Below the pieces are notes generated by a model that was not told the origin of the DNA, did not search any database, and was given only the letters and a program-made list of their open reading frames with translations. Shown here piece after piece: positions 19,133-55,388 of a stretch of 64,000 nt of DNA. The stretch comes from Pisolithus tinctorius (Eukaryota > Basidiomycota > Agaricomycetes > Boletales > Pisolithaceae). A program made the translations under genes and the position numbers. The number at the start of each line of letters is the position of its first letter. Position 1 is the stretch's first letter. The DNA lies in the NCBI GenBank assembly GCA_024663395.1, contig JANFAH010000001.1, positions 1,488,001 through 1,552,000 of the forward strand, read 5' to 3'.

Positions 19133-19339
19133 GGGCAGCAGCAGCGGGTAGCATCAGCGGGTAGCAGCGGCAGGTAGCAGCAGCGAGCGGCGCGGGTTGG
19201 TCCGCAGGCAGGAGGGTGAAGGGGGGGTGGCCATTGTTAGGCAGCAGCGTGGGGACGGGCCGGTGTGTGGCAGCGGTGGGATGTGGTGTCGCGAGATGGG
19301 GATGGGTTGGGAGTGAGGGGAGCGATGGGGGTTGGGTCG

Positions 19340-20227: not shown

Positions 20228-20349
20228 GGTTGTGGTACTGAGGAGCCTGAGATCGCCTGCGATCTGGGGCGTGGATGGGGAGATCCTTGAAAAGGGTGGA
20301 AAGGAGTGACTTGATTAGTTGGAATTAAGGAGCGACGGGAAAAAAGGGA

Positions 20350-20499
20350 GTGAAAACTGAACGCTGAGAAGCCCACGCTGTGGGCTGGGTTCTGACGACG
20401 ATGGAGGAAAGAAAAAACGAGGCGCGCGGCTACACAGCCACTCGCGCGAAGACGATATTCTATTACTCTGTCGTGCCTCCTACGTACTAGAATTCCTAT
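20350..20499 (-). repeat. Split direct repeat A1 of the DIRS-like element (5' end)
   Basis: This is the 150-bp A repeat at the element's 5' outer end, matching 15086-15235. The only difference I see is CCTACGTACTAG here against CCTATGTACTAG there, a CpG transition. It is followed by host LTR-element sequence (TTTTGCAGTCACTTT). Confidence 0.85.
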
Positions 20500-20588
20500 T
20501 TTTGCAGTCACTTTGCTCGCAGTTTCGTGTTTCCCACTCGCGCACACTCACATATCAAGCACTCGCACTCGTGTTACCCACTATCTTC

Positions 20589-21962
20589 ATGCTCGGCCTC
20601 AAAATTCCATGCCGAGGCTCGCCCGAAGCACCGAGCTTCTCTGGGCGCCCCGAGGACCTTCAAAGTTATTTTGATGACATAATCAACTTCTGTGATGGAT
20701 TCGGCCTCTCGGACAGGCTCGCGCGCATCAAATTTGCGCTCAAATATGCGCCTTTCGAATCGGCGGACCTCTGGTCCCACTTCGTCAGTAGTAGTCAAGG
20801 AGATTGGGCTCGTTTTACCTCGGAAATCACTCAGCAGTACCCAGAATTGGACGAAACGAGTCAAAGTCATGCCACCGAGCTTGCCAGCCTAAAGGTTGGA
20901 TTTGCGAGTTCAGATGTCATCTCAATGTCATCCCTAGGGCAATATTATCGCAATTTCCGTCGAATTTCGTTATCTCTCGAGAACCTACTGGGTCCGTTGC
21001 CCCACCTGGCCAGTATGTTCAAGTATGGGTTCCCTCCAGAGTTCAGGCGAGAGGTGCTCGAACACCACAACGCGTCAGAGTACTCTGTGCTCAGTCTAAT
21101 GTCTACAGCTAAGGAGGTCCTGAGGTCGAGCGGTGGCCTCTGGAAGAGCAGCAAGGTCGACAGTTCACGCGCGCAGCCATCACGCGCCTCAGACGGTCGC
21201 TCTCCCCGCTGTTTGTACTCGTTCTGCTTCTTCTGCGGACTCTCGGGCCATATTCGGGCAGGTTGCCATTCATTCAAGTTGTATTTAGCTTCGGGAAAGT
21301 GTCTACTTGTTGACGGCCGCGTTGTTCTACCTACAGGACTGGAAATCCCGTGCAAAGTTGCCGGACGGACTCTACGAGACCGTCTCGACAACTGGTCTTC
21401 GTTGACAAGCCAGTTCGAGACTCGTAGGGGCTCGTCGCTCACTCGCTCGCTTTCGCCCACAGCCACACCCTCTCGAAGCATGTTTGATGAACCATCGCGC
21501 ATACCCGCTCAGACAAGCATCGTGTCTACTTGGTCCCTACCTACTCTCCAGCTCGAGCCAGCAGTACCCAACCCGACAGCCATTCTGTCTCGTCGCTCGT
21601 CAGCCGAGCGCTCTCGTAACTCACCGCACGCGCAGCCACAGTCGAGGTGGCCACATACCCAGGGCGAATTGCCCTCGCATCGTCATTCACGCTCACGCTC
21701 ACAGACTCGAAAGGGTTCGTACATACGTTCGAAAGATGAATTCATACCGGTCCAGTCGTATTCCCACAGCTTGAAGCAGCATCATGCTCGAAGGTGCTCA
21801 TATTCATGTTCGACTAGTAGCTCACTCCCTTCTTCCTCGTCCTCATCCTCGCACTTGCACTCTCGCTCATACTCGAGGAAAGCCCGTTCGTTCGCCCACT
21901 CCAAGCCGAAGCGGTCGCACAGCCACAGTCGCACTCCCCGGCGCTCTCGAAGAGCGCATTAA
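20589..21962 (+). CDS. Gag-like protein of the LTR element with zinc knuckle and RS-rich tail
   Basis: This is the only protein of the host LTR element. The frame is open further upstream but the first good ATG is at 20589 (MLGLKIPCRGSPEAPSFSG). Residues about 10-200 are a helical gag/capsid-like domain: FSGRPEDLQSYFDDI, DLWSHFVSSSQGDWARF, MFKYGFPPEFRREVLEHH. A classical zinc knuckle CFFCGLSGHIRAGC (C-X2-C-X4-H-X4-C) follows near residue 220. The last 180 residues are very rich in Ser, Arg and His, with SR/RS dipeptides (SHSRTPRRSRRAH at the end). The gag at 42993 shares the pattern PRRxGxAPxFSGxxxDLxxYFE, so the two belong to one gag family. The RS tail could bind RNA or splicing proteins, which is inference. 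Confidence 0.75.
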   Translation: MLGLKIPCRGSPEAPSFSGRPEDLQSYFDDIINFCDGFGLSDRLARIKFALKYAPFESADLWSHFVSSSQGDWARFTSEITQQYPELDETSQSHATELASLKVGFASSDVISMSSLGQYYRNFRRISLSLENLLGPLPHLASMFKYGFPPEFRREVLEHHNASEYSVLSLMSTAKEVLRSSGGLWKSSKVDSSRAQPSRASDGRSPRCLYSFCFFCGLSGHIRAGCHSFKLYLASGKCLLVDGRVVLPTGLEIPCKVAGRTLRDRLDNWSSLTSQFETRRGSSLTRSLSPTATPSRSMFDEPSRIPAQTSIVSTWSLPTLQLEPAVPNPTAILSRRSSAERSRNSPHAQPQSRWPHTQGELPSHRHSRSRSQTRKGSYIRSKDEFIPVQSYSHSLKQHHARRCSYSCSTSSSLPSSSSSSSHLHSRSYSRKARSFAHSKPKRSHSHSRTPRRSRRAH

Positions 21963-23597: not shown

Positions 23598-23946
23598 TGT
23601 AGGGAATGTAATTTCCCTACTGGGGGAATTGTTTTATTTTGTTCATTTTATTTAGTTTTGATTCTAGGAGTTTTTTCTGCTAGTGGTACTTAGAATTTCG
23701 CATTTTTGGTTGCTTAGTCAGCACTACCTAGTACTGGATGTAGTTAGTTTTTTTTAAAACAATAGACAAGTTACCAGACCGAGAGATGAGTTCGAGCAGG
23801 TTGTTTCCCTGCACCCAGACAGCCATAGAAGCCTTCAGACAACTACCAGGATCCTTGCCTAGGCTATAGAAGCCCCTTTTGGCCTACTCATTCCCCTCAG
23901 ATCTCATCATTCCCCTCACTCATCCTCCTTAATCTCTTTTCCTACA
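23598..23946 (+). repeat. 3' LTR of the gag-only element
   Basis: Copy of 14323-14671 with six substitutions, mostly at CpG sites. It ends CCTACA and is followed by CCGCTACAG, which rejoins the interrupted gene. Confidence 0.9.
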
Positions 23947-32620: not shown

Positions 32621-32661
32621 ACTAGTTATGAGTAACTCAAAATTCTCAACTTACATCCTGA

Positions 32662-33338
32662 TGTAGGAAAAGTCCAAGTAGCTGTATAATACAAGCTAGA
32701 TGGCTTAGATAACAACAATAAAGATGAAGGGAATGAATTGCTTGTCCCAAGGGATTCTGGACTGCTGAGACTAGAAGGTGAGACCCAGTGCTTTGTAGCA
32801 GTAGTGATTCATGATGTGCATGGTGTGGTCCATGGAGTAGTACTGGCAATGCAAGCAGTGTGAGTGGTGTGCATAGTTCATGCGCAGCAGTATGCAAAAT
32901 GTGTGGTGTAGATGAAGTGGAAAAGAAACTCATGGTGACCTTCTGAGTGCCAAAAGGTATCATTCTGTACCCAAGTACAGGGCTTTATAGTCTGGGCAAA
33001 CCCAGAACCTAAGTAAGACAGAGTACAAGTAAGGAAAAAGGCACATGACAGTGTGTACACACAAGACAGGCTGGAACAGAGGCTGAGGGTATACTACTAG
33101 TGCAAAAGGAACAGAGACCATGGTAAAAGAAAGAGTCCAAGGGAAAAGAAGCGACCAGAGCACAGTGGCTGCAGGTATAGCATTGCATGAGAGGGAGCGA
33201 GGGCATGGGAAGGTAGTGAGGTAGGTGGGAAGGCAGTGCATGAACAGTGGTGGATGTGAGCAGTGAGGGGACATAATGGTAGTCATGGAATGGTCAATGT
33301 TAGGGCCTTACACATCCAGGGAATGCAGACTCCCTACA
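32662..33338 (-). repeat. Solo LTR of the gypsy family, CpG-stripped
   Basis: The reverse complement starts TGTAGGGAGTCTGCATTCCC and ends CTTGGACTTTTCCTACA. It aligns along its length with the gypsy 3' LTRs at 41610-42255 and 54731-55388, including the shared ACTTAGGTACAGAATGATA-like block and the CACTCAGAAGGTCACCA block. No gag or pol of this family flanks it, so it is a solo LTR left by recombination. Nearly all CpGs of the other copies read TpG or CpA here. Confidence 0.8.
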
Positions 33339-35320
33339 CCGAATCAGTGAGTACATGCATCTTGAAGCCGAACTTCCCAGCAGTGCTCAAGGGGTGATGC
33401 TGGGCCTGTGTTCAAAAAGAGCTATGATTTGGTTGGGCCAAATGTTGGTGAGGTTGTCAGTAGGTGTTTTTTTAATATAACTCAGATGCTGAGCAATAAA
33501 TGAGGAATGCGGATGGCTTTCCAGGAGCTACTGGTAAACTACTGGTAGCCTATAGGTGCAATGGCATCAGCTGTAAACACAGATATATCAAAATATGGTA
33601 CATGCCCACACAGTGGATACTTAGAGGTAGGCTCATACTTAATTTTCAGTCCAGTCATTTGCACATACAGATTCTGATAATCACTGATAATGCTGCTAGG
33701 TATGACAATAGTGATCTCATGCACTCAAGTCTGAGGGCTGCACACCATGAAGCTTTGGCAATTATTCACAAATTTCGAGCTGGCATGGTGATCAGCGAGA
33801 TCTAGCACTCTGGCCATTCTCTGATGTTGCTTGACTTGCTGCCAATATTGTCCTCACACAACCTGGTCTCTCCACTATTGTCCATACCATCTGAGGTTCC
33901 CTTATCATCTTCCAACATATGTGTGGCACTTGTGCCATGACTACTTGTATTGTCATCCACTTCACTATTCTTGCAATTGCATTCCACTATGGCTGGTGCT
34001 GATCATTTCCCTGCTCAACAATGGTACCATCATGACCATCTCTGTCAACTGTGTCTTGCCTTGCCCTTGATGATGCCAGATTTCAGCCACTTGACAGAGG
34101 TCTTCTCATATGCAATTGCAGATGGTCTTTACTGGACTGCCTCTACATGTGTGTTTTCTCTTGATCCTGTGACATTGTGTGTTCACTGTGTCCAGTATTG
34201 CCCCCATTGCCATTAGCTTGAAGATGACACTCTTCAATGATGAATTTGGCTTTACATTACCCTTGAGTAGCAATGACCCTCAACTGCCCATGATCATATG
34301 CCTCCAGATCTCCCAAGCACTGATTGTGCTGCATTCTCAGTTATATCAAATTTGAACCCAGATTCACTACCATCCCCCATCCTGGCATTGGTGTGCTGTT
34401 CCACTCCCATTACTTGTGGGCTGGTGTAGTGCATTTATTACTTGCATTCATGCATCCTGCAGGTTGTTTTAAGTGCTGTTATGCTTTTTCACTGGAAAGA
34501 CAATGTTCAAATTGATGCACTGCAATTCCCTGGCTGTCATGCCCATGCAGTTTGATACCAGTTTGATGAAGGTGAATGAGGACTATACCATACCCTTGAG
34601 GGGCACCTCAGGTCCAAGGTCAAGGAATGGGTAAAGCAGGACATAGTGAAGACTCATTTTGCTTGTGTTTTGGAGATGCTTCTTTGCCTCTGTCAAGGTG
34701 AGTGACTTGGTTCTCTGCTATGCCATTAAGGATTAATTTTGCCTGCTCCATAGCTTGTGATCACCTGATGCTTGTGTGTTGTAGTGGTGTTGTCAATGAA
34801 AATGTCTCTGCATCGTTGTCTTCTGATTCATTGGGTGGATGAAGTCAGTGCATCAGAGAATTGATCTCTTGACCAGACTTCATCTGGAAGCTGATGATGA
34901 CAACAATCACACATAAGGATGTACCTTCTGTTGTACAGCTAGTGATGGGCTTGACCAAACCCCACAGTGAAATTTTCTAGTCATAAATCTGTGTCTGGGA
35001 TATGCAATGTTCTAGCCCTGTCAGCAAAGATGAGACAGCTGGTCAACCTTCTCAAGATTGATGCTGATTCAGCAGGCTGAGGAAAAATGATCATATTCTT
35101 GTACTTCACATCCTTGCTGGATTTGGTACAAAAGTTCCTCAGTGCCAAAAGGCTTCATACTTACTCACTGTGAGTGTGAGACCTTCTGACTATCTTCAAA
35201 CTTGCTGACATATTATTTAGATGATGGATCTATGAGTCCATCCAAACATGAGTGGAACTTGGAGTACATTAGGAATGACATGGACATGAAATGTATCCTT
35301 GTATCTATCAAGGCAGGCAG
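33339..35320. other. Decayed sequence without a supported gene
   Basis: CpG-poor, with many short overlapping frames and no recognised motif. Confidence 0.4.
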
Positions 35321-40203: not shown

Positions 40204-41299
40204 CTACTCGATCCCATGCTCTGCCAGCACCTCTGCAAGCTGCTCGATGCACACCTGCAACCGAAGGTTGGCTGCATGCGCGGCCACCGCCTTGGCCCTT
40301 ACCATTGCGAGAGCCTGTGAGAGATCTGTTGCGGTCTTGTTGCTCACCACGCTGCACCCAGAGGTCTTGCCCTTCCCGCAGGTTCTGCTCTCGACCACTT
40401 CCACGATGTTGTCGTTGTCATCGTCGTGAGCCCACTTAGACGGACCGGCCTTAGGAGCCTTCGAGGATCACGCTGTAGCGGATTAGTCTCGGTTGCGTTG
40501 ACACACACTCGTCACTTACCAATTGATGCGCCGGCCTGCGCCTGCTTTCCTGCAGCCTTTGTTGACTTCTTGCATCCCTGCTTCATACACGTGCAACCAT
40601 CGCATGTTCGACCCTCCAGTCCGAAACACACTGCATTCTTCACCGAGCACCTCGTGCATGGCACCTTGTGCAGAACTGACCCAGGCAGGATCGTGACCCT
40701 CGGTCCTGCCTCATCCTCGCTCTCCACAATGGTCTGTCACGAATGCTGGAAATCTGCATGGTTTCCACAACATTGCGAACCGTTTAGACTCACTTACCTT
40801 GCGAGCCAGTTGAGGGACCTCCACATGGGACATTTTCACCTCTGTGCCTTCGTTGCCAACCCCCACTGCAGTCTCCTCACCCATATGGACATCTTGTTTG
40901 GCCTTAGCGCGCACTTCGGCTTCCTCTGCAGTCCACCGCTCATAGACATCATCGGCCTCAGCCAGCACGGGAGCATCTGCTGCGTCAACCCGCACGGAAA
41001 CCCCGAGTGTCTTCCCTCGCTCGACCAAGGGCATCAATGCCACCTGCGGCAGTCTCGTCAACCCACACGACCACATCACCGAATCAGCCTCTTACCGTCT
41101 TCTCCTCCCAGCGCCTTAGCCATATCGTTTTCTCTTCTCACATGTCCTCCCAATCATCAGGCACACATTTCACCTCAGCGATGAGCCCTGCTGATGCAGC
41201 TGTGATCTGCTCTCTCAAGGCAGCCTTCTCTGCCTCCGTGGGGTCTGGGGTCGATGCATGGACGAGTTGGGACAGTTGAGGGGCACGGTTTGCAGACAT
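40204..41299 (-). pseudogene. Antisense zinc-cluster gene of gypsy copy A, broken
   Basis: This has the same four-exon layout as the intact gene at 53304-54420: a start MSANRAPQLSQLVHASTPDP at 41299, donors GTAAGA or GTAAGT at matching places, and a cysteine cluster CTRCSVKNAVC...CDGCTCMKQGC with spacing C-X2-C-X6-C-X7-C-X2-C-X6-C. Two in-frame TGA codons interrupt it. One near the end of exon 1 replaces a Trp codon, and one at the start of exon 3 stands where copy B has an Arg codon. The rest stays open, which suggests recent loss. It lies antisense to the retrotransposon. Confidence 0.7.
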
Positions 41300-41573: not shown

Positions 41574-42255
41574 TGACCAGGGACAGTCAGCATCTAAGTC
41601 CCCCGCAGGTGTGAGGAATCCGCATTCCCTGGACACGTAAGCCCCTGTCATTAACTGTTCCATGACTACTGTTATGTCCACTCCCCTCTCGCGTTCACCG
41701 TTGTTCACGTGCTGCCTTCCCACGCCCTCGCTCCCTCTCACGCAGTGCTATACCCGCAGCTGCTGTGCTCCAGTTGTTGTTTTTCCTCGGACTCTTTCTC
41801 TTATCATGGTCTCTGTTCCTTTAGTGCTTGTAGTATACCCTCGGCCTCTGTTTTGGCCTGTCTTCTGTGTACGTGCTGTCGCGCAGCTTTCCTTTACTGT
41901 AGCCTGTCTTACTTAGGTTCCAGGTTTGCCCGGACTATAAAACCCTGTACTTAGGTACAGAATGATACCTTTTGGCACTTGGAAGGTCACCACAAATTTC
42001 CTTTACACTTTGTCTACACCGCACGTCTCGCATTCCGCCATGCATGAACTATGTATACCGCTCGCATCACCAGTACTATTCCATGGACCACGCTGCACAC
42101 GTCATGAACCACCACCGCTACAAAGCGCCGGGTCTCACCTTCTAGTCTTGACAGTCCAGAATCCCTTGGGACGAGCAATTTGTTCCCTTCATTTTTTATT
42201 GTTGTTATCTAAGCCATCTAGCTCATATTATACAGCTACTTGGACTTTTCCTACA
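41574..42255 (+). repeat. Hairpin motif, second copy, and 3' LTR of gypsy copy A
   Basis: TGACCAGGGACAGTCAGC up to CCCCCGCAGG (41574-41609) directly precedes the LTR. The LTR (41610-42255) starts TGTGAGGAATCCGC and ends CTTTTCCTACA. It contains a TATA-like CGGACTATAAAACCCTG at about 41931, a likely transcription start region. Confidence 0.8.
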
Positions 42256-42815: not shown

Positions 42816-42834
42816 TGGAGCCCACCGTGAGGGG
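42816..42834 (+). promoter_or_regulatory. Primer-binding site
   Basis: TGGAGCCCACCGTGAGGGG, identical to the site at 14674 except for CGCG to CGTG. Confidence 0.7.
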
Positions 42835-42992
42835 GGTTCTGTTTGTTTTGGGGAAAGAAGCCACCACCTTATCACCACACGAAAATTTTTGCTGGATTCA
42901 GTTTGGACAAGCTAAGTGTTCAGGGTCTCGGTTCTAGTTACAGTCTACACTCAGAAATTCCGGAATTTTCAGAATTATTTTTTGAGCAGCAA

Positions 42993-44906
42993 ATGAAGAG
43001 CGAACGACTAAGTCGAAGATCCCACGAGTTGAGAAGCAAATCTGAAGGCAAATTAATAGTCAAATTTTTGCGAAGAAGCCGTGAGAATGCGCCAAGAGAG
43101 CTCAGGGGAATGCCACCGAGGCGTTCGGGGGACGCACCATGGTTCTCAGGGTATGCATCTGACCTTTTTAGGTATTTCGAAGAGGTTCGAAGTCTTTGCG
43201 AGCGCGAGAATTGCTTTGATGACCAAGAATGGGCGAAATGGGTTTGCTGGTATGCAAGTGGTGAAGTCTCAGACTCATGGTATGAATTCGTTGAAGATCA
43301 GCTGAGTTGGCCCGAGTTCGCAGTGGCCATTGCGCGCTTATATCCCAGATCTAGGGAATGGGATCAACAGTACTTGAGGAATGACCTTTACAGCCTCGTT
43401 GACAGCCGAGCAAGAAGAGAAGTTTGTACAGAGGAAGAACTGATGAACTACAGACTTTATTTTCTAGATTTAGCAATGTATCTACGGGTTTCGAAGCAAC
43501 TCGAGGCCGATGAGCTCGAAGACCTCTATTTACAAGGCTTCAACAAGGAATTCCGGCACGAAATTGTTCAGAAAATGCGACGCGACGATTGACGGCGACA
43601 CTCAGATGACCCATGGCCCATGGAGCAAGTAACATACACAGCAACACGACTACTACACAAAGGATTTCGCTTGGAGCAAGCACGAACAAGCACAGGAGAC
43701 TACTATGAGCCACGAAGTGACCCAGAATCAAGTTCGGACAAGCAACATCTATCTACGAAGTGTTTTCTGCCTACAGCTACACATGACTCGCTGATGACCA
43801 ATGTACAGGGATCTACAGAGTTAACAGGATACATAGAGTGTGAGAAAGTACTGAAGTTAGTTTCAACAAGTCGTGCGCAGCCACACAGCCCACCCAAGAA
43901 GACAAATAGTGAGGACCGAAGCCCTGGCAGGCTCATCGAAGCAGCCACAGCAACCTGTTTTGAGACAGGAGAGTTTTCTTTGAGTACGAACAGAATACTG
44001 ACGACTGAGTTACAGGAAGCAGTAGAACTCGAGCAAGTTGAAACAGCATTGGTGGAGGAACCGCTCACAATGAAAGTCCCATTCAAATTCGAAGCGAATT
44101 GCAACACTCAAAGGGGTTTTTCATTTTGTTTGTATCGAGCTTCTCTGATGGCTACTGGTGTGTCACTACAGGAGTCCTACCTAAGAGGTCGAGGTAATGA
44201 AAGAAGCGGCCTCGGAGTTCCTGCAGTCAGCAGATATACGCATCAGTTAACCAATGACCTGCTCAGGTCAAAGATTCCGCTCGAATTCAAAGCCGAAAGG
44301 CTCGAAGAACACCCGAAGCCCACAGGAGTTGAAGTTGAAGGGCTCAAAACACTCACAGGCAGTCCTGAAACAGATAGGTTGGCATACAAAGAGGTCATTG
44401 ACTCACACAGAGCGCCGTGGCACATGAATCACATCGAGTCGAAGGTTATTGCGAGAAGAATTCAGATCGAGGAGCCATCGAGGCTCGTCATACGAAGGAA
44501 GCCACCGGATGAAGTTTTGCGAATCGAAATGTTGAAGCACGCGGCGAGGGTGGACGACCTCGCACTTGAAATGTTCCATGGCAGCGCGGTGCCAGCAATA
44601 TATATTTTATTCGAGAATCCGTCGAGAGAATCGACGCGCGCACTTGGTATTAGGACTTGTAGAGGAAGTCCAGCGATGTTGACTAAGCGGAGTCACGTGA
44701 CCGCTCAGCACGTTGTGGCCGCACGCACTCAAGTACTACATACTGACGACTCTACTGTTACAGGCCGGCTGTGCAGGATCGCGGCGATCGAAGAATATGA
44801 GGAATGGGGCAAGTGGCGTACTGTATGGAAGTTACCGCAACTACGAGCGATGGCGACAGCAGCAAAAGCACCAGAGTCTGCTGACTTTGACCAAGCAATG
44901 TGGTAG
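42993..44906 (+). pseudogene. Gag-like protein of the third LTR family, one in-frame TGA
   Basis: The first ATG in a good context is at 42993 (MKSERLSRRSHELRSKSEGK), although the frame is open from 42843. Residues about 35-195 hold the same gag domain as the protein at 20589: MPPRRSGDAPWFSGYASDLF, a helical core, and LYLQGFNKEFRHEIVQKMRR. A TGA at 43590-43592 interrupts the frame, which then continues in the same phase to 44906 with a long hydrophilic region and no zinc knuckle. The last ten or so codons come from the palindrome inserted at 44877. The stop fits CGA to TGA decay. Because the gene runs into the palindrome, its real C-terminus is missing. Confidence 0.65.
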
Positions 44907-45117
44907 TTACCACAAAAGCAGTTACAGAATTCATGGCAACTACCACTTCCCAATATAGACAATGCCCCCTGAGTGACAACCTCTGTCGGTGTTTGAAAAA
45001 AATTCAGATTGGAATGTTCCCACGGTGGGTTACCCTGTCACAAATATTGATAATTTGCACCTGTACTGTGGCTATACAGATGAGCATGTGACCAGTAGAT
45101 GTGATGGTCACATGATG

Positions 45118-45522
45118 AGTGACATAAGCAGGGATGACCCTAGATCACGTGATTTTTTACGTAATTGATTACATGACGACGGTCCTCCGGAGCGTTCTGT
45201 TACGTAATGTGTCACGTGATCGTGGGAAAATATGCATGTGACTTAATCAATGTCACATGACAAGGTACAATCATAGATCATCCAACCTATTACATAATGA
45301 TCACATGTCAGTTTCTCCCCAGAACACTTGGTTATGTAATGGGTCACATGATTGTGAGACAATAGACATGTGACCACTCCTGCAGCATCACATGACAAGG
45401 TACAATTGTAGATCATGTGACCTTTTACATAATGATCATGTGGCAATAACTCTCCGGTCCATTGGCTTATGTAATAGGTCACATGACTGTACTCATCATG
45501 TGATCTCACCTCTAGCACTCTG
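45118..45522. repeat. Three 135-bp tandem units with TCACGTGA and TTACGTAA sites (left arm)
   Basis: Units start at about 45118, 45253 and 45388, with TAGATCA at the same offset in each. Each has TCA-YR-TGA and TTA-YR-TAA palindromes, usually in the order TTAYRTAATG then TCAYRTGA. The outer unit keeps CpG (TCACGTGA at 45145 and 45212, TTACGTAA at 45157). The two inner units have CA or TG instead. Confidence 0.8.
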
Positions 45523-46730
45523 CACATGACTCAATCCATATCACATGACCAGCAATCCCACCCCTATTCGCATGCTGGGCATTTGTGGCTGTGCTAAAAA
45601 TGCGAATTGTGTCCCCACCCATTCAATTCTTGACATATGGATCTGAATTTTTGTGTGTAGAGTAGGTTACCATGTTGCTACACATTGTCAAAGACACAGG
45701 CTGTCTGGTCCAGCAGTTGCTGAGATATAATGGAAATGAAAATGCTAACAAAACATCTCACCATTCAACTTACACATCCTTCATGCCACATCTGAAACTT
45801 CAGGAGGGTTGAAGAAGATTCCTGCAATGCATGTCCAAAGTTTCAAGTTTATCCATTTAGAATTGAGTGAACAGCAAGCCAAATACTGATCCCAGAAGCG
45901 TGGGAAAGCTTCAAAAAGAGAAAATAAAATAGTGGAGATTTTGAAAACATATCAAAAACAAAGCACAGCACATCCCACAGTGCAGCTACCACTACCAGAA
46001 CTTAGGTGAGGGATATTGGGACATGGTGGAAGATATTAGTAACAAGTGCCTGATGTGATACTCACTGCAAATGCTCAAAAATGCGAAATGGTACACTTGA
46101 CTCATTGAGACAATGGGAGATTTATGCCAGTGCAAGGTCAACACCACTACCCCATTGCACACATTTTCGCAATTTTGACATGTTTAAGTGGATATCTCAC
46201 CAGGCACATGGTGCCAACATGGTAGGCCATATTGCTGCATTCCTCACCCAAAGTCTGGGGTTGGCAGGGTCACTGTGATGTGTGCAAATCCACATTTTTG
46301 ATATGTTTTCAAAATCTCCATATGTTATTTTGGGACTTTTTCCCACTTTCCCACACTCTTGAATCTTTATTTTGCATCTTGCTCTCTCAGATCTGAGTGG
46401 GGTGACACCAAACTTTGTCTATGAATTGATATGCATATGTCCAACCCTTCTGAAGTGTCAGATATGGCATGAAGGATGTGTAAGATGAATGATGTAATGT
46501 TTTGTTAGCATTTTCATTTCCATTATATCTCAGCAACTGCTGGACAAGACCAGCTGTGCCTTTGACAATGTGTAGCAACATGGTAACCTACTCTACACAC
46601 AAAAATTCAGATCCATATGTCAAGAATTGAATGGGTGGGGACACAATTCGCATTTTTAGCACAGCCACAAATGCCCAGCATGCGAATAGGGGTGGGATTG
46701 CTGGTCATGTGATATGGATTGAGTCATGTG

Positions 46731-47135
46731 CAGAGTGCTAGAGGTGAGATCACATGATGAGTACAGTCATGTGACCTATTACATAAGCCAATGGACCGGA
46801 GAGTTATTGCCACATGATCATTATGTAAAAGGTCACATGATCTACAATTGTACCTTGTCATGTGATGCTGCAGGAGTGGTCACATGTCTATTGTCTCACA
46901 ATCATGTGACCCATTACATAACCAAGTGTTCTGGGGAGAAACTGACATGTGATCATTATGTAATAGGTTGGATGATCTATGATTGTACCTTGTCATGTGA
47001 CATTGATTAAGTCACATGCATATTTTCCCACGATCACGTGACACATTACGTAACAGAACGCTCCGGAGGACCGTCGTCATGTAATCAATTACGTAAAAAA
47101 TCACGTGATCTAGGGTCATCCCTGCTTATGTCACT
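46731..47135. repeat. Mirror set of the three 135-bp units (right arm)
   Basis: Inverted copy of 45118-45522 with the same CpG-containing outer unit (TCACGTGACACATTACGTAA at about 47034) and CpG-free inner units. Confidence 0.8.
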
Positions 47136-47480
47136 CATCATGTGACCATCACATCTACTGGTCACATGCTCATCTGTATAGCCACAGTACAGGTGCAAAT
47201 TATCAATATTTGTGACAGGGTAACCCACCGTGGGAACATTCCAATCTGAATTTTTTTCAAACACCGACAAAGGTTGTCACTCAGGGGGCATTGTCTATAT
47301 TGGGAAGTGGTAGTTGCCATGAATTCTGTAACTGCTTTTGTGGTAATTACCATGGTCATTTGGTCAAAATCAGCTGATACGGCTGCAAGAGGTACAGACA
47401 ACCGTCTCTATCTGGCGGACGGGAGCTGAATCCCATGTTTCCCTGAATGTAACTCACTGAGAGAGGCTGTTGACCGCGTC

Positions 47481-48827
47481 ATGGCTGACAGAGACCAGGC
47501 CAGCACATGCGCCGCGACTCCTGCTCCACGCAACATGGCCGCGCAAGGCACTGCCAACCTCTTCTGCGTTGCTCATCCTGAAATTGATGTGCAGTTGGAG
47601 ATCCAGCCTTCTGCCTTCTTAAACACCGTCCAAGATGCCAATGAACCTGTCGCAGACTTAGCTGACCCTGACTTCCAAGCATATGTCGCTCAAGCTTGGG
47701 CTACCTACCAAGCAGATAAAGGTAACAAGGGAGCAGTCATTCCCCACGAAAAGAAAGCCCGCTTCGACGGAGTTGAAATCACAGCTCGACCTGTGGCACG
47801 TCCTGCCAACCCTCCATGAGTCAACCCACATGCAGCCACTGTCGAAGAGGAAATCATTTCCCCTGGCGTTCAAAGTTCGTGTGCCACTTGCCAGGCATCC
47901 AAGCCCTCCACACCTGCACCAACATCCAGCACTATGAAACCATATGTTCCTCCAACTAGTCTGGCTCTGATGCCCACGTGCAAGGACCCCGTTCCCATGG
48001 CAATTGTTCCGTCACAGACACCGTACCCAGCAGCTCGCAATCAAAACCAGTATCATTACTCGTTCCCTCTCGAAGACGAAGCCACGCCCAAGCGTATCGT
48101 GGAGCGCGTACTTGAAACCAGCGTTGCCATGCCAGTCAAAGAATTATTTGCAGTAGCCCCAGAGTTTCGCAAACAGTTCAGAGACATCACCATGGCGAAA
48201 CACATCACCGCAAACGAGATTGAGGTAGTTCGTAGCGACAATGAAGAAGGAGTACAAGTGAATGAACTGACCGGCCGCGATCCCCAAAGAACCACGCGTG
48301 AATACGGAGACCGCATTATCCGCAGTGACGACGGCTCCATCGTAGCTCACCACACTCTGCCGCTCCGCTGCATCGAAGCCAAGGTCCCCGGGACCGACGT
48401 CACAATCAACTGCGTACTAGATTCCGGTTCGGAAATCGTTGCCATGCCCAGGCACGTTTGGGAAAAGATCGGGCTTCCATTGCGCTGTGATCATCTCATG
48501 ACTATGACGTCTGCTAACATGTCTAAAGACACTACTGTAGGCGTACTAGACAACCTGAAACTCGACTTCAGCGCTGGGCCAGTCATGCTACAGGTTCAGG
48601 TAATTGAACATGCCAACTTCGACATGCTCCTCGGACGTCCGTTCATTTGCCTTATGAGTGCGGTGACAAACGATTATCCCGATGGTGGACAGCAGATCAC
48701 TCTCCGAGACCTGAATGACGGCCGTGAGTACACTTTGCCCACGTGCCCGTGGCGCGAGGGCTGTCCACACTGCAAGTGCGGCAAGCACTGCCATAGCCAC
48801 CAAAGTATAGTCGAATGGGGTTTTTGA
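47481..48827 (+). pseudogene. Gypsy copy B gag remnant and aspartic protease
   Basis: The frame begins MADRDQASTCAATPAPRNMA and is interrupted by one TGA (47817-47819), after which it continues in phase. Only a short gag-like remainder is present. The protease part has the catalytic DSG motif in CVLDSGSEIVAMPRHVWEKI (near 48415) and the conserved FDMLLGRPF further on. It ends with a Cys/His-rich end (CPHCKCGKHCHSH). The frame ends at TGA 48825-48827, 13 bp after the next frame opens, so the polymerase is reached by a frameshift or follows a decayed junction. The protease motif itself looks intact. Confidence 0.75.
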
Positions 48828-51800
48828 ATATCGATGATCCACCAAACGGTCGGGGAGAGCCTACTAAAACGTCCTGTTTCCTATTTAGCCACTGTTATCC
48901 GTTCCTCAGTCCTACAGTCTCATCATTAGCCTTTACTTCGACGAACTTCTCTTCGCCCATGGCACCCGTACCACGGAACATACCCACCGGAATACCCTCG
49001 CCTGTTTTCGCTTTCCTCTCTTCCACTCAGACAATACTAAACCCCTCTGCTATAGCCACATTCGGCAGCGTTTATCAACTAGATCCTGCGGTTCGCACCC
49101 TCGTTTACAAGCCGGTTGCCAAGAAGGTTCAGATGGTACCTGCCCCGATGGCGGAAGAATACCGCATCGTGCACAGCCTGCCTGACGACCCGCTTGCTGG
49201 TCTCCAACAACTTCCAACCCATCCACCAGACTTTGCTCCGGGCACCCGCTTCACCACCGAACGGGCCGCAGAACTCGACCTCGATCCTGCAGATTGGCTT
49301 TGGCCAGAAGAACTTAAACTCGTAACTTGGCTCGTTTCGGTCCATGAGCTCGCATTCGCTTGGGACATTACAGAGCGTGGACACCTAGACGAACGCTATT
49401 TTCCACCAGTAAAGATTCCTACGATTCCGCACACGCCATGGGTCCAACGCAATCTCCCTATCCCGAACGCGATCCATGCCCAAGTCATAGACATGATTAA
49501 AGATCGCATCAAGTCCAGCATGTATGAACCTTCTACAGCGGCTTATCGCTCCCACTGGTTCTGCGTAGTAAAGAAAGACGGAAAGTCTCTTTGCCTTGTG
49601 CATGACTTACAGCCCCTGAATGCAGTGACCATCCGCGATGCGTCCGTTCCGCCCTTCATAGAGCACCTCGCAGAATCCTTTGCTGGATATGCAGTGTATG
49701 CGATGATGGACCTCTACTCTGGGTATGACCAGCATGCACTTCACGTGGATTCCCGCGACCTCACCACCTTCGGTACCCCCCTCGGACCACATCGGCTTAC
49801 TACTCTGCCGCAGGGTCATGCGAATGCGGTACAGGTATACCAGGGAGATACTGCATTTGTGCTCCAGGATGAGATCCCACACCATACCCTGCCTTTCATA
49901 GATGACGTCCCCATGAAATCCGAGACCACCCGCTATCAGCGCACAGACGGCTCCTATGAGACTATCCCGGAGAATCCTGGGATTTGGAAATTTATCTGGA
50001 ATCACTGTATAGTTGTTAACCATATCCTTCAGCATTTGCAGAATGTTGGAGCCACCGTCTCGGCAAAGAAGTTCGTGCTAGCCGCTCCATCCGCTGTGAT
50101 CGTTGGGCACAAGTGCACCTTTGAAGGTCGCATTCCTGAAGAAAGCAAAGTGCAGAAGATCCACGACTGGCCCGAGTGCCGCAACCTGACACAGGTCCGC
50201 AGTTTCCTCAGTGTCTGTGGAGTGCTACGCATCTTCATCAAAGATTTCGCCAAGATTGTGCGGCCGCTAGTCGCACTCACACAGAAAGACGTACCATTCA
50301 CATGGGATGAACTGCAATGCGCTGCCATGCAATGACTCAAGGACGAAATTGTAAAGTCCCCTGCACTCCGAAGGATTGACTATGAGTGCAATCACAAAGT
50401 AATTTTAGCAGTTGACACATTGGTCATCGCAGTTGGCTACATCCTCTACCAGCTCGGCGAAGATGGCAGGCAGTACCCGAGTCGCTTCGGATCCATCACC
50501 CTCAACGAAGTGGAAAGCTGCTACTCCCAGGCCAAGCTTGAGTTGTATGGTCTCTTCCGCACGTTGCACACGGTACGCGTATACATCTTCGGTCTCACTA
50601 ACTTCACTGTGGAGGTAGATGCGAAGTATATTAAGGGCATGATAAATAACCCAGATCTGCAGCCTAACGCAACGATCAATCGCTGGATCGCTGGTGTCCT
50701 CCTTTTCTCGTTCAAACTCGTCCATGTTCCCGCGGACAGGCATGCCGGCCCTGATGGCTTATCCCGCCATCCACGGTCAGAGCTCGACCTGCCCGAGGAT
50801 GACGACCATGAGGATTGGCTAGACCGTTTCTACTCTTTCTCTACACAGGTCGTCAATGACCGCCCACCTCTTATGTCACTTTCCAGTCAAGATCACCACT
50901 CCCTACCGCCACCTGCTTACCATCGGGCAAGCCTCCCGCCGCCTGCATCCTTCTATCTCACATTCTCTGCGACTGCTGATGCTAATAACCCTTCCGATAC
51001 CCCAGACGACCCTGCCATTCCGCAGTCTGCAAAAGCTCGGGCATGCGAAGCAAAGATAGAAATGATCCGCGCATTCCTCGCGACCCGCGAGCGACCTCCT
51101 GACCTTACTGATGTGCAGTACTCATCCTTCTTTAATTCGGCCAGCTGCTTCTTCCTCCTAGATGGTAACTTATGGCATAGGGAACCGCACGGACGGCACC
51201 AGCTAGTCGTTGACGAATCCAAGCAGTATCATCTCATCAAAGAAGCGCATGATGACCTCGGACACAAGGGAGTCTTCATGGTCCGCACGCGCCTTCTCCT
51301 TCGCTTCTGGTGGCCTCTTCTTGTCGAGGATGTGAAGTGGTATGTCCGCACTTGTCATGAATGCCAGATCCACCAGATGCAGAAGCTTCATATTCCCCCC
51401 ACTGTGCCCATGATAGGGGGCCTGTTTCATAAAGCTCACATTGACACGATGCTGATGCCCAAAGCCGGCGGCTACCGCTACATAGTACAGGCTCGTTGCA
51501 CGCTCACCTCATATCCTGAATGGCGCATGTTGCGCGCGGAAAATAGTACTGCGCTCGCGTCCTTCATCTTCGAGGATATCCTATGCCGCTGGGGTCCGCT
51601 CACCGAGATTGTCACCAACAACGGTCCCGTGTTTGTCCAAGCTTTAGATGCCCTAGCTGCGCAATATCATATCCATCACATCCGTATCTCTCCTTACAAC
51701 TCTCAGGCTAACGGCATTGTAGAGCGCTGCCACTATGATGTTCGCGAGGCTATCATGAAGAGCTGTGAGAACGATGATCGCCGCTGGCACACCGTTGTGC

Positions 51801-52423
51801 ACTCCGTCTTCTGGGCCGAGCGGGTCACCATTCTGAAGTCTATGGGTTTATCCCCTTACTTCATGGTGCATGGTGTCGAGCTGCTGTTTCCATTTGATCT
51901 TGCTGAGGCTACCTTCCTCTTACCCCTATCCCGTGATGATGCGACACTGCTGACTACCACAGAACTGATAGCTTGGCAAGCATGCCAGTTACAGAAGCGT
52001 CAGGATGACCTAGACCAGGTCCGTGGCAATGTCCTCTGCGCACGCTTTCAGTCTATCTGGCAGTTCGAAACTGCCTTTCAGCATCGCATTAAAGACCATA
52101 ACTTCGCTCCCAGCACCCTCGTGCTTGTTCGCAACTCCCACGTCGAGAAAGAACTGAACCGGAAGACGAAGCTGCGGTACACTGGTCCCATGGTCATCCT
52201 TCATCGGACCACTGGGGGTTTGTACCTGCTGGCTGAGTTAGATGGCTCCATCTCCAAACTCCGCTTCGCTGCATTCCGCTTACTTCCCTACCACCCGCGG
52301 TCTCAAACCCGCACAACTGTGACTCGCGTTACTGGGCTAGATGATGAAGAACTAGACCACCTTGAAGAGGCTGAGGATGACCCCACTGATGATGATGTGG
52401 AGGCTTTTTCCGCGGACAGCTGA
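48815..52423 (+). pseudogene. Gypsy copy B reverse transcriptase, RNase H and integrase
   Basis: Reverse transcriptase motifs in order are WVQRNLPIP, YRSHWFCVVKKDGKSL, MMDLYSGYDQH, LPQGHANAVQ and the active site FIDDVPMKS (near 49903), with both Asp kept. A TGA at 50333-50335 splits the frame just before RNase H, where family members have Arg. RNase H follows (ILAVDTLVIAVGYILYQ, NEVESCYSQAKLELYGLF, HVPADRHAGPDGLSR). The integrase has its HHCC-like zinc part (HLIKEAHDDLGHKG, CHECQIHQ) and the catalytic core with HIDTMLMPKAGG, EIVTNNGPVF and NGIVERCHYDVREAI. The second catalytic Asp is Asn (AAC, 51617-51619), so this integrase is probably dead. The C-terminal domain and an acidic tail close the protein. 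Confidence 0.85.
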
Positions 52424-52565
52424 CTATCTGTCCTTTCCAGTACCTGCAGTTTGTCCATCATGCTATTCCCCCGTACCCTCTTCTCCCACGATACCCATAC
52501 CTCTTTCCGCGGCCTCGCCCGCCTCCCTGCAGCTTCTTCTACTACACTCGTTCCTCCTCCCATGC

Positions 52566-52605
52566 TGACTGGGGACAGTCAGCGTTCAAAGTCCCCCGCA
52601 GGGGT
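52566..52605 (+). repeat. Hairpin motif, first copy (gypsy copy B)
   Basis: TGACTGGGGACAGTCAGC and a block ending AAGTCCCCCGCAGG, after the polymerase stop. Between here and 53303 I see only non-coding DNA, probably the 3' untranslated part of the antisense gene. Confidence 0.7.
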
Positions 52606-53303
52606 GACCAGCATACCACTTGATCCGCCCGATATCAGACATAGTTCGTTTCCTTTTATCTGTTTTACCCCGGGTTTCGTCCGGAGACCTCTATTCCACC
52701 CCGGGTTTCGTCTGGTGATTCTACTGATAGCTAGTCCTCGCTCAAAAAACATAAAAACCGCTTACAAAAAGTCCAAAACCGTCCAGAAAAATAACAAAAC
52801 ACTGAATAAGTATATAGCCAAAACAACGTCTCTCCTATCTCTCTTACTAGTCTCACTGATGCCATCCTCGGCCGCCCTATACCACGGATCTTCGCAACCA
52901 CCCTGCACATTTCCTCTTCGATCGCACAGTCAGCGTGCGCCCCTTGATTTATTTTTCTTTCAATTCTCCTTCCGTCTCCTTACAATTGATACACAAAGAC
53001 CGCCCCAGCTACCCAATAAACAGTCCCTTCGCTTCCTCTTCAAGAATCCGTCACATCCTACCATCAAGATTGTTTCATGAGGACATACCGCTAAGAGAAG
53101 TCAAAAGTTGCACAAAGAAGACAAGTCGGGTGGTACCCTGTGCATCATATCTTACTGCGGCTGCACTGCCCCGCGGAACATCTTCAAGCATTTCGAGTCG
53201 TTCGCAACTTTGTGCAGAAGCAAGAAAAGCGGTGTATTTAGCGCGGTATGCGCTGACATGCGGATGGGACAGTACAACGAATCTGGACTAACTACAAACG
53301 TTC

Positions 53304-54420
53304 CTATTCCACCCCAATCTTCTCCAGAGCTTTGGCGAGCTGATCGATGTGCACCTGCAGGCGAAGGAATGCGGCCTGTGATTCCACAGCTTTGGCTCGC
53401 AGCAGCCTCAGCAATTGCAAGAGGTCTGCCGCGACCTTGGCATCGAGCCAGTTGCGCATGAGTGCCTTCCCTTTCCCGCGCATGTGGCTCTCGACCACTT
53501 TGACTTCATCATCGTCGTCGTCGTCCTCGGCGGCAGCCCGCTTCGATGAACTGGCCTTTGCAGCCTTTGCAGACCGCGCTACTTGATGTCAGCCATAGTT
53601 TTCTCGAGGTAAAGTGGGCACTTACCGGTAACTGTGCCTGTCTGCGTCTTCTTCCCCGTGGACTTGTTCGATTTCTCGCACCCCTGCTTGATGCATGCAC
53701 AGCCATCGCAGGTCCACCTGACGGGCCTGGTACAAGCTGCCTTCTTCACCATGCACCGTGTGCAGGGGATCTTGTGAAGGATCGAGCCAGGTGGGATAAT
53801 GATCTTGGGCTCGTCCTTGTCTTCGCTCTCTGCCACCGTTTGCCGCAATTGCTTAGGACTTCAGTGTTAGCCGCTACTGCACCGTCCAGATTCCGCACTT
53901 ACCTTCTGAACCGGACGGGACACCACTTTGATGTGCGACATTTTCTCTGTCGTCACCGGCACCTTGGCACTGGTACCCTGCTCAATGACAGCCTGTGCGA
54001 CCGCCTCTTCCATCCGCATGTCCTCGTTGGCTCTCCCCTGCACGATCTCCTCGGACACCCACCTCTCATAGGCCTCATCGGCCTCCACTACCGCGGGACC
54101 ATCCGCCGCGTCTATTTTGGTGTCGATTCCCAACGCTCGCCCACGCTCGACGAGGGGGAACACTTCTCCCTGGAAAACAGTCGGTACTGTGAGCCTCAAA
54201 GGCATTGGACACTTACCGTCCTCTGCTCCCATCTGCGCATCCACATCACTTTCTCCTCCCACAATTCCTCCTTGTCATCTGGGAGGCACTTGGCCTCAGT
54301 GACCAGAGCTGCGGAGGCGGCAACGAACTTCTCCCTCAGCAAGGTCTTCTCTGCTTTGATCGGGTCGGGGGTGGCTGCGCATACGAGCTGGGAGAGATGA
54401 GGGGCACGGCCAGCAGACAT
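53304..54420 (-). CDS. Antisense Zn(II)2Cys6-type protein carried by the gypsy element
   Basis: Four exons on the strand opposite to the retrotransposon genes: 54420-54217, 54169-53903, 53851-53626 and 53578-53304. All junctions are GT-AG with GTAAGT donors, introns are 47-51 bp, and phases agree, giving 323 residues without a stop. The start is MSAGRAPHLSQLVCAATPDP. Residues about 187-215 read CTRCMVKKAAC then TRPVRWT then CDGCACIKQGC, the spacing C-X2-C-X6-C-X7-C-X2-C-X6-C of the fungal zinc-cluster DNA-binding fold. The N-terminal half is acidic and helical. The C-terminus has an Asp run (residues about 247-253) and a leucine-rich helix (LLQLLRLLRAKAVES) that may dimerise. DNA binding and any role in controlling the element are inference. 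The broken sister gene is at 40204-41299. Confidence 0.75.
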
Positions 54421-54693
54421 GATGAGAGCAATAGAAGGGGTCGATGATGGGAGGAAAGAATCAAATCGATGCGAAGGTTTGAGCCGCGCACTAACAATTA
54501 TATACTTAGCGGCCATGAGGCGCTTATGTCATCGGTCTGGACACCTATACATGGTATTCAACGGCCTTCTCACGTCCCTCAGCTCTATGCTTCCTTCACT
54601 TCTACATGGAGCTCTCTGGTATTCTCGAACCCTCGGCACCACACCGTTGCCATCACCACGCGGCAAGCTATTTATGTCCTCTGCGCCACGTGG

Positions 54694-55388
54694 CTGACCA
54701 GGGATGGTCAACATCTAAGTCCCCCGCAGGTGTGAGGAATCCGCATTCCCTGGATGCGTAAGCCCCTATCATTAACCATTCCGTGACTACTGTTATGTCC
54801 GCTCCCATCTCACATTCACCATTGTTCACACGCTACCTTCCCACACCCTCGCTCCCTCTTGTGTGGAGCTAGACCTGCGGCCGCTGTGCTCTGGTTGTTG
54901 TTTTCCTCGGACTCTTTCTCTTATCACGGTCTCTATTCCTTTAGTGCTTGTAGTATACCCTCGGCGTCTGTTTGGCCTGTCTTCTGTGTATGCGCTGTCG
55001 CACAGCTTTCCTTTACTGTACCCTGTCTTACTTAGGTTCCGGGTTTGTCCGGACTATAAAGCCCTGTACTTAGGTACAGAATGATAACCTTTTGGCACTC
55101 AGAAGGTCACCACGAGTTTCTTTTCCACTTTGTCTACACCGCACATCTCGCATTCCGCTGCGCACGAACTACGTATACCGCTCGCACCGCTCGCATTGCC
55201 AGTACTACTCTGTGGACCACACCGCACACGTCACGAAACACTACCACTACAAAGCGCTGGGTCTCTCCTTCTAGTCCTGACAGTCCAGAATCCCTTGGGA
55301 CGAACAATTCATTCCCTTCATTTTTTTTTTATTGTTGTTATCTAAGCCATCTAGCTCGTGTTATACAGCTACTTGGACTTTTCCTACA
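54694..55388 (+). repeat. Hairpin motif, second copy, and 3' LTR of gypsy copy B
   Basis: The motif (TGACCAGGGATGGTCAAC to CCCCCGCAGG) is followed by the LTR at 54731-55388 (TGTGAGGAATCCGC ... CTTTTCCTACA). A TATA-like CGGACTATAAAGCCCTG lies at about 55050. The LTR is alignable throughout with 41610-42255. Confidence 0.85.

What the first reader, a model, noticed from the sequence alone, without database searches (positions are those of the whole stretch)
53304..54420. Retrotransposon-borne antisense gene for a Zn(II)2Cys6-type protein
Between polymerase and 3' LTR of gypsy copy B lies an intact four-exon gene on the opposite strand. Its six cysteines have the spacing of the fungal binuclear zinc cluster, otherwise typical of transcription factors. 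A spliced antisense gene cannot be made from the retrotransposon's genomic RNA, so it should be driven from its own promoter near the LTR. It could act as a regulator of the element or of host genes, or be a captured host gene. That it is present at the same place in both copies shows it is part of the family, not a chance insertion.
Basis: partly seen in the sequence, partly recalled or inferred. Interest (0 to 1): 0.8.

Follow-up and report, generated by a model that had tools for sequence, protein, structure and literature searches.

The report
Swappable antisense zinc-cluster-like retrotransposon gene
A family of jumping elements in the mycorrhizal fungus Pisolithus carries, back to front between its polymerase and its end repeat, a spliced gene for a protein with a zinc-cluster-like motif, and different versions of that gene have been exchanged between otherwise similar copies; what the protein does is untested, but it looks like a self-regulator.

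Summary
In Pisolithus tinctorius a Ty3/gypsy element carries, antisense between pol and the 3' LTR, a real four-exon gene (54420-53304, 323 aa, identical to annotated M404DRAFT_25986). Of 30 element copies sampled by pol alone, 27 carry it, all antisense. Splice sites, a TATA box 84 nt before the ATG and six cysteines (CX2CX6CX7CX2CX6C; 21-22 of 22 copies) are conserved; dN/dS is 0.21-0.23, like pol. Relatives were found only in Pisolithus. Similarity to fungal Zn(II)2Cys6 domains is weak (Pfam below cut-off; best PDB match PPR1, E 0.78), so membership is not claimed. Gene alleles differ by up to 0.51, yet pol distance is the same within and between allele classes (0.071, 0.074), and the pol tree rejects each of the three large classes as a clade. 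A second, chromodomain gypsy family in the same genome has its own antisense six-cysteine gene. Antisense ORFs at this place are known from plants and from Botrytis Boty (brtn): a new variant of a known kind. Best reading: an element-encoded nuclear regulator; the function is inferred, and transcription could not be tested.

The parts
54217..54420 (-). exon 1 of the antisense gene, ATG at 54420 (start of the predicted helical domain, residues 20-132)
   Evidence: structure model
54170..54216 (-). intron 1 (47 nt, GTAAGT...CAG)
53903..54169 (-). exon 2
53852..53902 (-). intron 2 (51 nt, GTAAGT...AAG)
53626..53851 (-). exon 3, holds the six-cysteine cluster
53678..53764 (-). six-cysteine cluster C187-C190-C197-C205-C208-C215 (CX2CX6CX7CX2CX6C)
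53579..53625 (-). intron 3 (47 nt, GTAAGT...TAG)
53304..53578 (-). exon 4: acidic stretch and C-terminal long helix (residues 279-319)
54498..54504 (-). TATATAA box, 84 nt upstream of the ATG, inside the best-conserved 23-nt window (54498-54520) of the 5' flank
53150..54430 (.). hypervariable island (gene plus about 150 nt of its 3' flank): mean pairwise distance 0.25-0.36 up to 54000 in pol-sampled copies, against 0.04-0.14 on the adjoining pol side; the LTR-side edge is less sharp
   Evidence: pol side, read to 54000; LTR side
54731..55388 (+). 3' LTR of copy B
54693..54735 (+). polypurine-tract-like stretch and LTR edge, second copy of a 44-nt direct repeat that brackets the gene
52564..52607 (+). 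first copy of the same 44-nt direct repeat, just after the pol stop codon
50336..52423 (+). RNase H, integrase zinc-binding domain and integrase part of pol
48797..50335 (+). reverse transcriptase part of pol (frame ends in a stop codon at 50333-50335)
47820..48827 (+). aspartyl protease part
40204..41299 (-). copy A of the antisense gene, same exon layout, three in-frame stops, different allele class
41610..42255 (+). 3' LTR of copy A

Best explanation
A resident accessory gene of a Ty3/gypsy family (an antisense 'additional ORF' between pol and the 3' LTR) makes a regulator of the element. Likely steps: (1) RNA polymerase II starts at an internal antisense TATA promoter 84 nt before the ATG, outside the LTR (inferred from conservation); (2) three short introns are removed from that transcript only, and the element's genomic RNA, of opposite strand, carries them along unspliced, which is why they survive retrotransposition (follows from strand and intron presence); (3) the protein has an N-terminal helical domain (predicted), a binuclear-zinc-cluster-like DNA-binding module, a basic and acidic linker and a C-terminal helix that could dimerise (inferred); (4) it works in the nucleus on the element's own promoter or LTR, setting expression or copy number (inferred). 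The gene moves between co-resident elements as a swappable cassette through recombination (shown by tree conflict), so several allele lineages coexist on similar backbones.
For: Resident gene: 27 of 30 pol-sampled copies have it antisense (L079 and L080 are duplicates of each other); of 30 gene-sampled loci 28 have the LTR just upstream and 23 show pol within the fetched flank, and the two without LTR (L021, L023) have pol. Selected as protein: dN/dS median 0.21 over 66 pairs of the 12 intact copies among 29 rows, and 0.229 against 0.235 for pol on 45 pairs of ten copies; codon-position and indel patterns, cysteines in 21-22 of 22. Own promoter: the best of 278 windows of the 5' flank holds the TATA box, which occurs in at least one member of each of the six gene classes of that set. 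Zn-cluster-like: spacing; PPR1 best PDB match with all six cysteines aligned (E 0.78) and the only PDB match of the whole-protein profile (E 7.7); Zn_clus the only Pfam family hit among 16 alleles of the region (8 of 16, best E 0.12). Architecture: helical domain with mean pLDDT above 90 over residues 21-100, C-terminal helix 279-319 at about 70-78. Cassette: between classes gene p-distance 0.332 and pol 0.074, within 0.123 and 0.071; AU tests on the pol tree reject each of the three seven-copy classes as one clade (p 1.4e-5, 4.4e-4, 3.7e-12); dS between two classes 0.781 in the gene and 0.237 in pol (21 pairs), within 0.296 and 0.262 (24 pairs). Parallel: a chromodomain gypsy family with its own antisense six-cysteine gene.
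Against: No transcript, binding or localisation data. Zn_clus is not reached at its cut-off by alleles of this family (best E 0.12) and is not hit at all by the window's own protein. The cysteine region is modelled with pLDDT below 50, so the fold is not shown. No binding site was identified. In the gene-sampled set gene distance also follows the LTR and flanks (Mantel rho 0.35-0.54 outside the island, 0.68 next to the gene), so gene and backbone are not fully independent. The classes are not all clearly separate: classes 2, 3, 4 and 5 grade into each other (down to 0.165) and L065 looks like a recombinant within the gene. Three of 30 pol-sampled copies show no recognisable gene, so it may not be needed for every transposition event.
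Confidence: 0.5

Rival explanations
1. The protein is not a transcription regulator but a replication or integration helper: a nucleic-acid-binding accessory factor, for example a chaperone, nuclear importer or integrase tether, that uses its cysteine cluster to bind RNA or DNA.
For: Six conserved cysteines, a basic linker and a long C-terminal helix fit nucleic-acid binding in general; the Zn_clus match is weak; some plant antisense aORF proteins are nuclear with unknown role (PMC7264820, passages).
Against: Spacing is that of the binuclear cluster and not of a retroviral CCHC knuckle (the CCHC pattern is recalled); a separate promoter allows expression apart from gag-pol, which suits a regulator better.
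Confidence: 0.2
2. Allele diversity is driven by conflict: the cassette is an immunity or incompatibility locus. Each lineage represses elements with its own target site, and swapping frees an element from repression by resident copies.
For: Gene lineages up to 0.51 apart sit on backbones that differ by 0.07 and are scattered over the pol tree; the diversity is in the gene, while the core promoter is conserved.
Against: No lineage-specific target site was found; the TATA block and neighbouring promoter are nearly the same in all classes; classes 2-5 form a graded series and not clear-cut types; neutral recombination between old lineages would give the same tree conflict.
Confidence: 0.1
3. The RNA matters and not the protein: antisense transcription makes double-stranded RNA with the genomic RNA and tunes silencing.
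For: Convergent transcription is built into the layout; discussed for plant elements (PMC7264820, passages).
Against: dN/dS of 0.21-0.23, mostly multiple-of-three exon indels, conserved splice sites and cysteines show selection on the protein.
Confidence: 0.08
4. A captured host gene carried as a passenger, or an ordinary host gene interrupted by nested insertions.
For: Introns and its own promoter look like those of a host gene; a 44-nt direct repeat brackets it, as a capture scar might.
Against: No free-standing copy among 30 gene-sampled loci, no relative outside Pisolithus in two searches, and purifying selection equal to that on pol.
Confidence: 0.08

Closest known systems
[quoted passage not shown] PMC7264820 and PMC11963269, passages read
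   Same: Same place and orientation, present in all or most copies, own promoter reported for Grande gene23, nuclear or predicted DNA-binding products, unknown function
   Different: The words 'intron' and 'zinc' do not occur in the main text of either paper; no sequence comparison with them was made; allele swapping was not among the passages read
Botrytis cinerea Boty antisense gene brtn (Zhao et al. 2011, seen only as a title and citations in PMC7264820, PMC8365987 and PMC4227169)
   Same: A fungal gypsy element with an additional antisense gene; the Boty-like gag-pol holds a chromodomain (PMC4227169 passage), like the second Pisolithus family here
   Different: Ascomycete; whether its protein has a cysteine cluster is not known to me from any call; not compared by sequence
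Fungal Zn(II)2Cys6 transcription factors (PPR1, GAL4, LEU3, PUT3)
   Same: Cysteine spacing; PPR1 is the best solved match of the cysteine region; a helix after the cluster could dimerise
   Different: Below Pfam's cut-off; cluster in the middle of the protein; no other Pfam domain of such factors was hit; encoded by a mobile element
HTLV-1 HBZ (antisense retroviral gene; named in a PMC11963269 passage)
   Same: Antisense, nuclear regulator encoded by a retroelement; spliced (recalled)
   Different: HBZ is a bZIP protein (recalled) and HTLV's antisense promoter lies inside the 3' LTR (PMC7264820 passage); here the TATA box lies outside the LTR
Phage repressor-immunity cassettes (recalled, no call)
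   Same: Diverged alleles of a DNA-binding regulator on shared backbones
   Different: Analogy only; no immunity was tested

Membership tests
Fungal Zn(II)2Cys6 (Zn_clus, PF00172) proteins | Six cysteines spaced CX2CX6CX5-12CX2CX6-8C (pattern recalled) | tested here: met
   CX2CX6CX7CX2CX6C; codons kept in 21-22 of 22 copies; 60 of 104 database models show the full pattern, the other 44 lack part of it, gene or gene model at fault not sorted
Fungal Zn(II)2Cys6 (Zn_clus, PF00172) proteins | Score above Pfam's curated cut-off | tested here: not met
   No hit for the window protein at E up to 10; 8 of 16 alleles of the region hit, best E 0.12 (bit scores not shown there; an E of 5.7e-4 is still below the cut-off of 21 bits)
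Fungal Zn(II)2Cys6 (Zn_clus, PF00172) proteins | Similarity to a solved Zn2Cys6 domain | tested here: inconclusive
   PPR1 (1pyi) best of 177635 PDB sequences but E 0.78 and 7.7; region modelled with pLDDT below 50; fold comparison tested mainly residues 12-112
Fungal Zn(II)2Cys6 (Zn_clus, PF00172) proteins | Binds two zinc ions and DNA | not testable with these tools
   needs purified protein
Antisense additional ORF (aORF-3R) of LTR retrotransposons | Lies between pol and 3' LTR, antisense | tested here: met
   window anatomy; 28 of 30 gene-sampled loci show the LTR and 23 of 30 show pol in that layout
Antisense additional ORF (aORF-3R) of LTR retrotransposons | Present in most copies of the family | tested here: met
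   27 of 30 pol-sampled copies (the 30 are the best of 40 listed, of 224 candidates)
Antisense additional ORF (aORF-3R) of LTR retrotransposons | Transcribed from its own promoter | not testable with these tools
   conserved TATA box only; no RNA data held
Ty3/gypsy LTR retrotransposon | Protease, RT, RNase H, integrase in gypsy order, with LTR | tested here: met
   Asp_protease_2 1.7e-8, RVT_1 1.1e-5 (below cut-off), RT_RNaseH 6.6e-13, Integrase_H2C2 7.5e-16, rve 7.1e-4 (below cut-off); LTR

The most novel reading that the evidence does not exclude
Fungal gypsy elements carry immunity-like cassettes: antisense, self-promoted genes for zinc-cluster DNA binders that exist as diverged, interchangeable allele lineages, swapped between element backbones by recombination, each controlling elements of its own specificity. 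Two different gypsy families in one genome (one of them with a chromodomain) hold such genes, so this could be a general strategy of mushroom retrotransposons.
Probability: 0.1. Interest if true: 0.88.

Novelty: new variant of a known kind. Interest (0 to 1): 0.62.

Why it matters
Antisense ORFs between pol and the 3' LTR have been described for years, and the reviews seen here call their roles undetermined. Here is a multi-copy, introned, selected gene with a recognisable (if weak) DNA-binding motif, a conserved promoter and natural allele lineages on similar backbones. That makes a self-regulation or immunity role directly testable by comparing alleles in reporter assays. It also warns that many 'Zn(2)-C6 fungal-type' genes annotated in Pisolithus may be parts of retrotransposons and not host transcription factors.

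Tried and rejected
Sense-strand ORF 53504-54400 (298 aa) as the real gene: rejected. An open stretch of 290 aa or more remains in 8 of 22 copies, but substitutions follow the minus frame in all four exons, while in the plus frame the first codon position varies most (that script's own line '6 of 22 intact' counts the terminal stop as a break and is not used).

Faster mutation as the cause of the diverged island: not supported. Within classes gene dS (0.296) is close to pol dS (0.262); only between classes does it rise (0.781 against 0.237).

On checking, class 1, class 6, class 7 and the group 2-5 are 0.31-0.51 apart, but classes 2, 3, 4 and 5 grade into each other (class 3 to 4: mean 0.225, least 0.165), and L065 is nearer class 4 in exon 4 and nearer class 3 in exon 3 (least class 1 distance 0.308). 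I lowered the immunity reading from 0.12 to 0.10 for this.

gag-like ORFs 42831-44906 as the 5' part of copy B: unlikely. Among the 40 listed copies of 44300-44870 and the 40 of 47390-48000 only the window's own pair and one pair about 6 kb apart on opposite strands (contig C4) lie close together. Both lists are the best 40 of 169 and 196 candidates.

Homology of the two antisense families: undecided; profile comparison E 4.3e-4 but probability 34% over the cysteine part, and 2.7% for the cysteine regions alone.

Family spread outside Pisolithus: none among 87 and 98 hits (the second scored only the 7998 candidates sharing most words). For the second family 175 hits, of which only the 120 listed could be read, all P. 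tinctorius.

Copies without the gene: in L059, L073 and L076 similarity to copy B ends at 53140, 52527 and 53017; no pol-PPT-LTR form without the gene was seen. Partial matches to ends of two database models (P0079 in L073, P0086 in L076) were left unresolved.

Print: the ten searches, judged by their listings, showed no paper on a zinc-cluster antisense gene in a fungal LTR element; the library lacks most subscription papers and preprints.

Full report
What is there. The window lies in contig C1 of a 92.5-Mb genome; the gene in question is identical to M404DRAFT_25986 of Pisolithus tinctorius Marx 270, a fungus of the Boletales. On the plus strand 47820-52423 encodes aspartyl protease, reverse transcriptase, RNase H and integrase of a Ty3/gypsy element, and 54731-55388 is its 3' LTR. 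Between them, on the minus strand, lies the gene: four exons, three short introns with GTAAGT donors, 323 residues. Copy A, about 13.1 kb to the left, has the same layout and three in-frame stops. Copy B itself is damaged: an inverted repeat (44877-47377) lies at its left side, no 5' LTR was found in the window, and its pol frame holds a stop codon at 50333-50335.

Is it a gene of the element? Two samplings were used. Sampling by gene (210 matches, 124 of 583 candidates scored, so a lower bound; 30 loci fetched): 28 of 30 have the LTR right upstream of the ATG, 23 of 30 have pol on the opposite strand within the fetched flank, and none has neither (L001 and L026 are the window's own copy, L005 and L006 give the same matches). 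Sampling by pol alone (40 matches listed of 224 candidates, 30 loci fetched): 27 of 30 carry the gene antisense (L079 and L080 are duplicates). In the other three, similarity ends before or at the edge of the gene.

Is it a protein under selection? Of 29 rows (27 loci plus A and B) 12 have an intact spliced frame. Among these dN/dS has a median of 0.21 over 66 pairs; choosing intact copies biases this down, so the comparison with pol on the same pairs is the better test: 0.229 against 0.235 over 45 pairs of ten copies. Independent of intactness, 22 aligned copies show codon-position bias in every exon, 44 of 54 exon indels in threes against about a third elsewhere, and the cluster cysteines in 21-22 of 22, while two other cysteines (C14, C210) vary and C45 is kept in 22 of 22.

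Promoter. TATATAA lies at 54504-54498, 84 nt before the ATG and outside the LTR. The best-conserved of 278 23-nt windows in the 5' flank, 54498-54520, contains it; it is exact in 19 of 22 copies and present in all six gene classes of that set. A transcript from it has the right strand for splicing; the genomic RNA does not. That is sequence logic only; no RNA was available.

What the protein resembles. The spacing CX2CX6CX7CX2CX6C is that of the binuclear zinc cluster. Sequence support is weak but points one way: Zn_clus is the only Pfam family hit by alleles of the cysteine region (8 of 16, best E 0.12), and PPR1 is the best PDB match. AlphaFold2 gives a confident N-terminal helical domain (residues 21-100 above 90) and a C-terminal helix; the cysteine region is not modelled. 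Hence 'works like a zinc-cluster protein' is plausible, 'is a Zn_clus member' is not claimed.

The main new result: a swappable cassette. In 26 pol-sampled copies (30 less three without gene and one duplicate) mean pairwise distance is 0.04-0.14 in the integrase half of pol and the 3' flank, jumps to 0.36 at 53150 and stays at 0.25-0.32 through the gene as far as read, to 54000 (the high means at 50300-51199 come with medians of 0.07-0.11, so a few rows cause them). On the LTR side the edge near 54430 is softer: 0.12-0.19 in the flank against 0.19-0.32 in the gene in a 22-copy gene-sampled set; among the intact copies mean distances are LTR 0.10, 5' flank 0.14, 3' flank 0.14, introns 0.35 and gene dS 0.61. 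Copies L057 and L065 differ by 2.5% in pol and 31% in the gene. Clustering at 0.22 gives three classes of seven copies, one of two and three single copies; pol distances within and between classes are 0.071 and 0.074, and AU tests reject each seven-copy class as a clade of the pol tree. Classes were set from the gene before the pol tree was made. They are not all clear-cut: class 1, class 6, class 7 and the group 2-5 are 0.31-0.51 apart, but classes 2-5 grade into each other, and L065 looks like a recombinant within the gene. Synonymous divergence between two of the groups is 0.781 in the gene and 0.237 in pol, within them 0.296 and 0.262. So old allele lineages have been moved between backbones, most simply by template switching between co-packaged RNAs or by gene conversion; which of these is not shown. 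Against full independence, gene distance correlates with LTR (rho 0.35) and outer flank distances (0.39-0.54) in the gene-sampled set, while in the pol-sampled set its correlation with pol distance is 0.19.

A second family. A database model (P0017) fused to another gene led to a second antisense gene with at least 150 matches. In 11 of 12 fetched loci it lies opposite and downstream of a chromodomain gypsy pol end (L046 and L047 score alike and may be duplicates). It has two exons, with a CX2CX6CX12CX2CX6C cluster (102 of 120 listed database models), a long N-terminal helix and a C-terminal helix. Zn_clus matches 10 of 12 alleles, best E 1.6e-4; the one member whose score is shown has 20.4 bits against a cut-off of 21, so the best member may reach it. 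The matched halves are in swapped order relative to LEU3 and the Pfam model, an unexpected permutation. Its gene is also more diverged than the neighbouring pol end, but mildly (exon 2 0.163, exon 1 0.108, pol end 0.092; eight of twelve loci used).

Origin. A 44-nt direct repeat brackets the gene: just after pol (52564-52607) and at the PPT-LTR junction (54693-54735), 80% identical in B and seen as a cross-match in 22 of 29 rows. It could be a second plus-strand primer or the scar of the acquisition. The 52550-52849 stretch holding it is among the most conserved of the region, which favours a function. No host source gene was found.

Compared with what is known. Antisense ORFs between pol and the 3' LTR are established in plants (PMC7264820, PMC11963269; passages read), and one is named in a fungus, Boty brtn (title and citations only). 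A Pisolithus genome paper reports zinc-finger genes among the commonest near repeats (PMC10066745, passage), which the present finding may partly explain; that is inference. Ten library searches listed no report of this gene. I rate it a new variant of a known kind.

Noticed in passing
L040-L051 (for example L042, L046, L050), own genome: A second, highly repeated antisense two-exon gene opposite a chromodomain gypsy pol, with a six-cysteine cluster whose halves match the Zn_clus model in swapped (circularly permuted) order.
   Followed up: partly
52564-52607 and 54693-54735: A 44-nt direct repeat with a polypurine-tract-like core on either side of the antisense gene; the surrounding 52550-52849 is among the most conserved parts of the element.
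   Followed up: partly
44877-47377: A 2.5-kb inverted repeat (arms of 911 nt, 98% complementary) at the left side of copy B; looks like a foldback DNA transposon or a head-to-head insertion.
   Followed up: no
14323-14671 and 23598-23946: A pair of 349-nt direct repeats, 98% alike, about 9.3 kb apart, ending in the same TTTTCCTACA as the LTRs of copies A and B; they enclose long ORFs (15487-20314 minus, 20361-21962 plus) that gave no Pfam match at E 0.001.
   Followed up: partly
6451-8136: A Helitron-like ORF (Helitron_like_N, DUF6570).
   Followed up: no
2222-3031: A phosphatidylserine decarboxylase-like reading frame on the minus strand.
   Followed up: no
32654-33340: A solo LTR, minus strand, about 80% like the LTRs of copies A and B.
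   Followed up: partly
public gene models such as P0015, P0044, P0048: 44 of 104 annotated proteins of the family lack part of the cysteine pattern; some look like intron-exon errors in the annotation.
   Followed up: no
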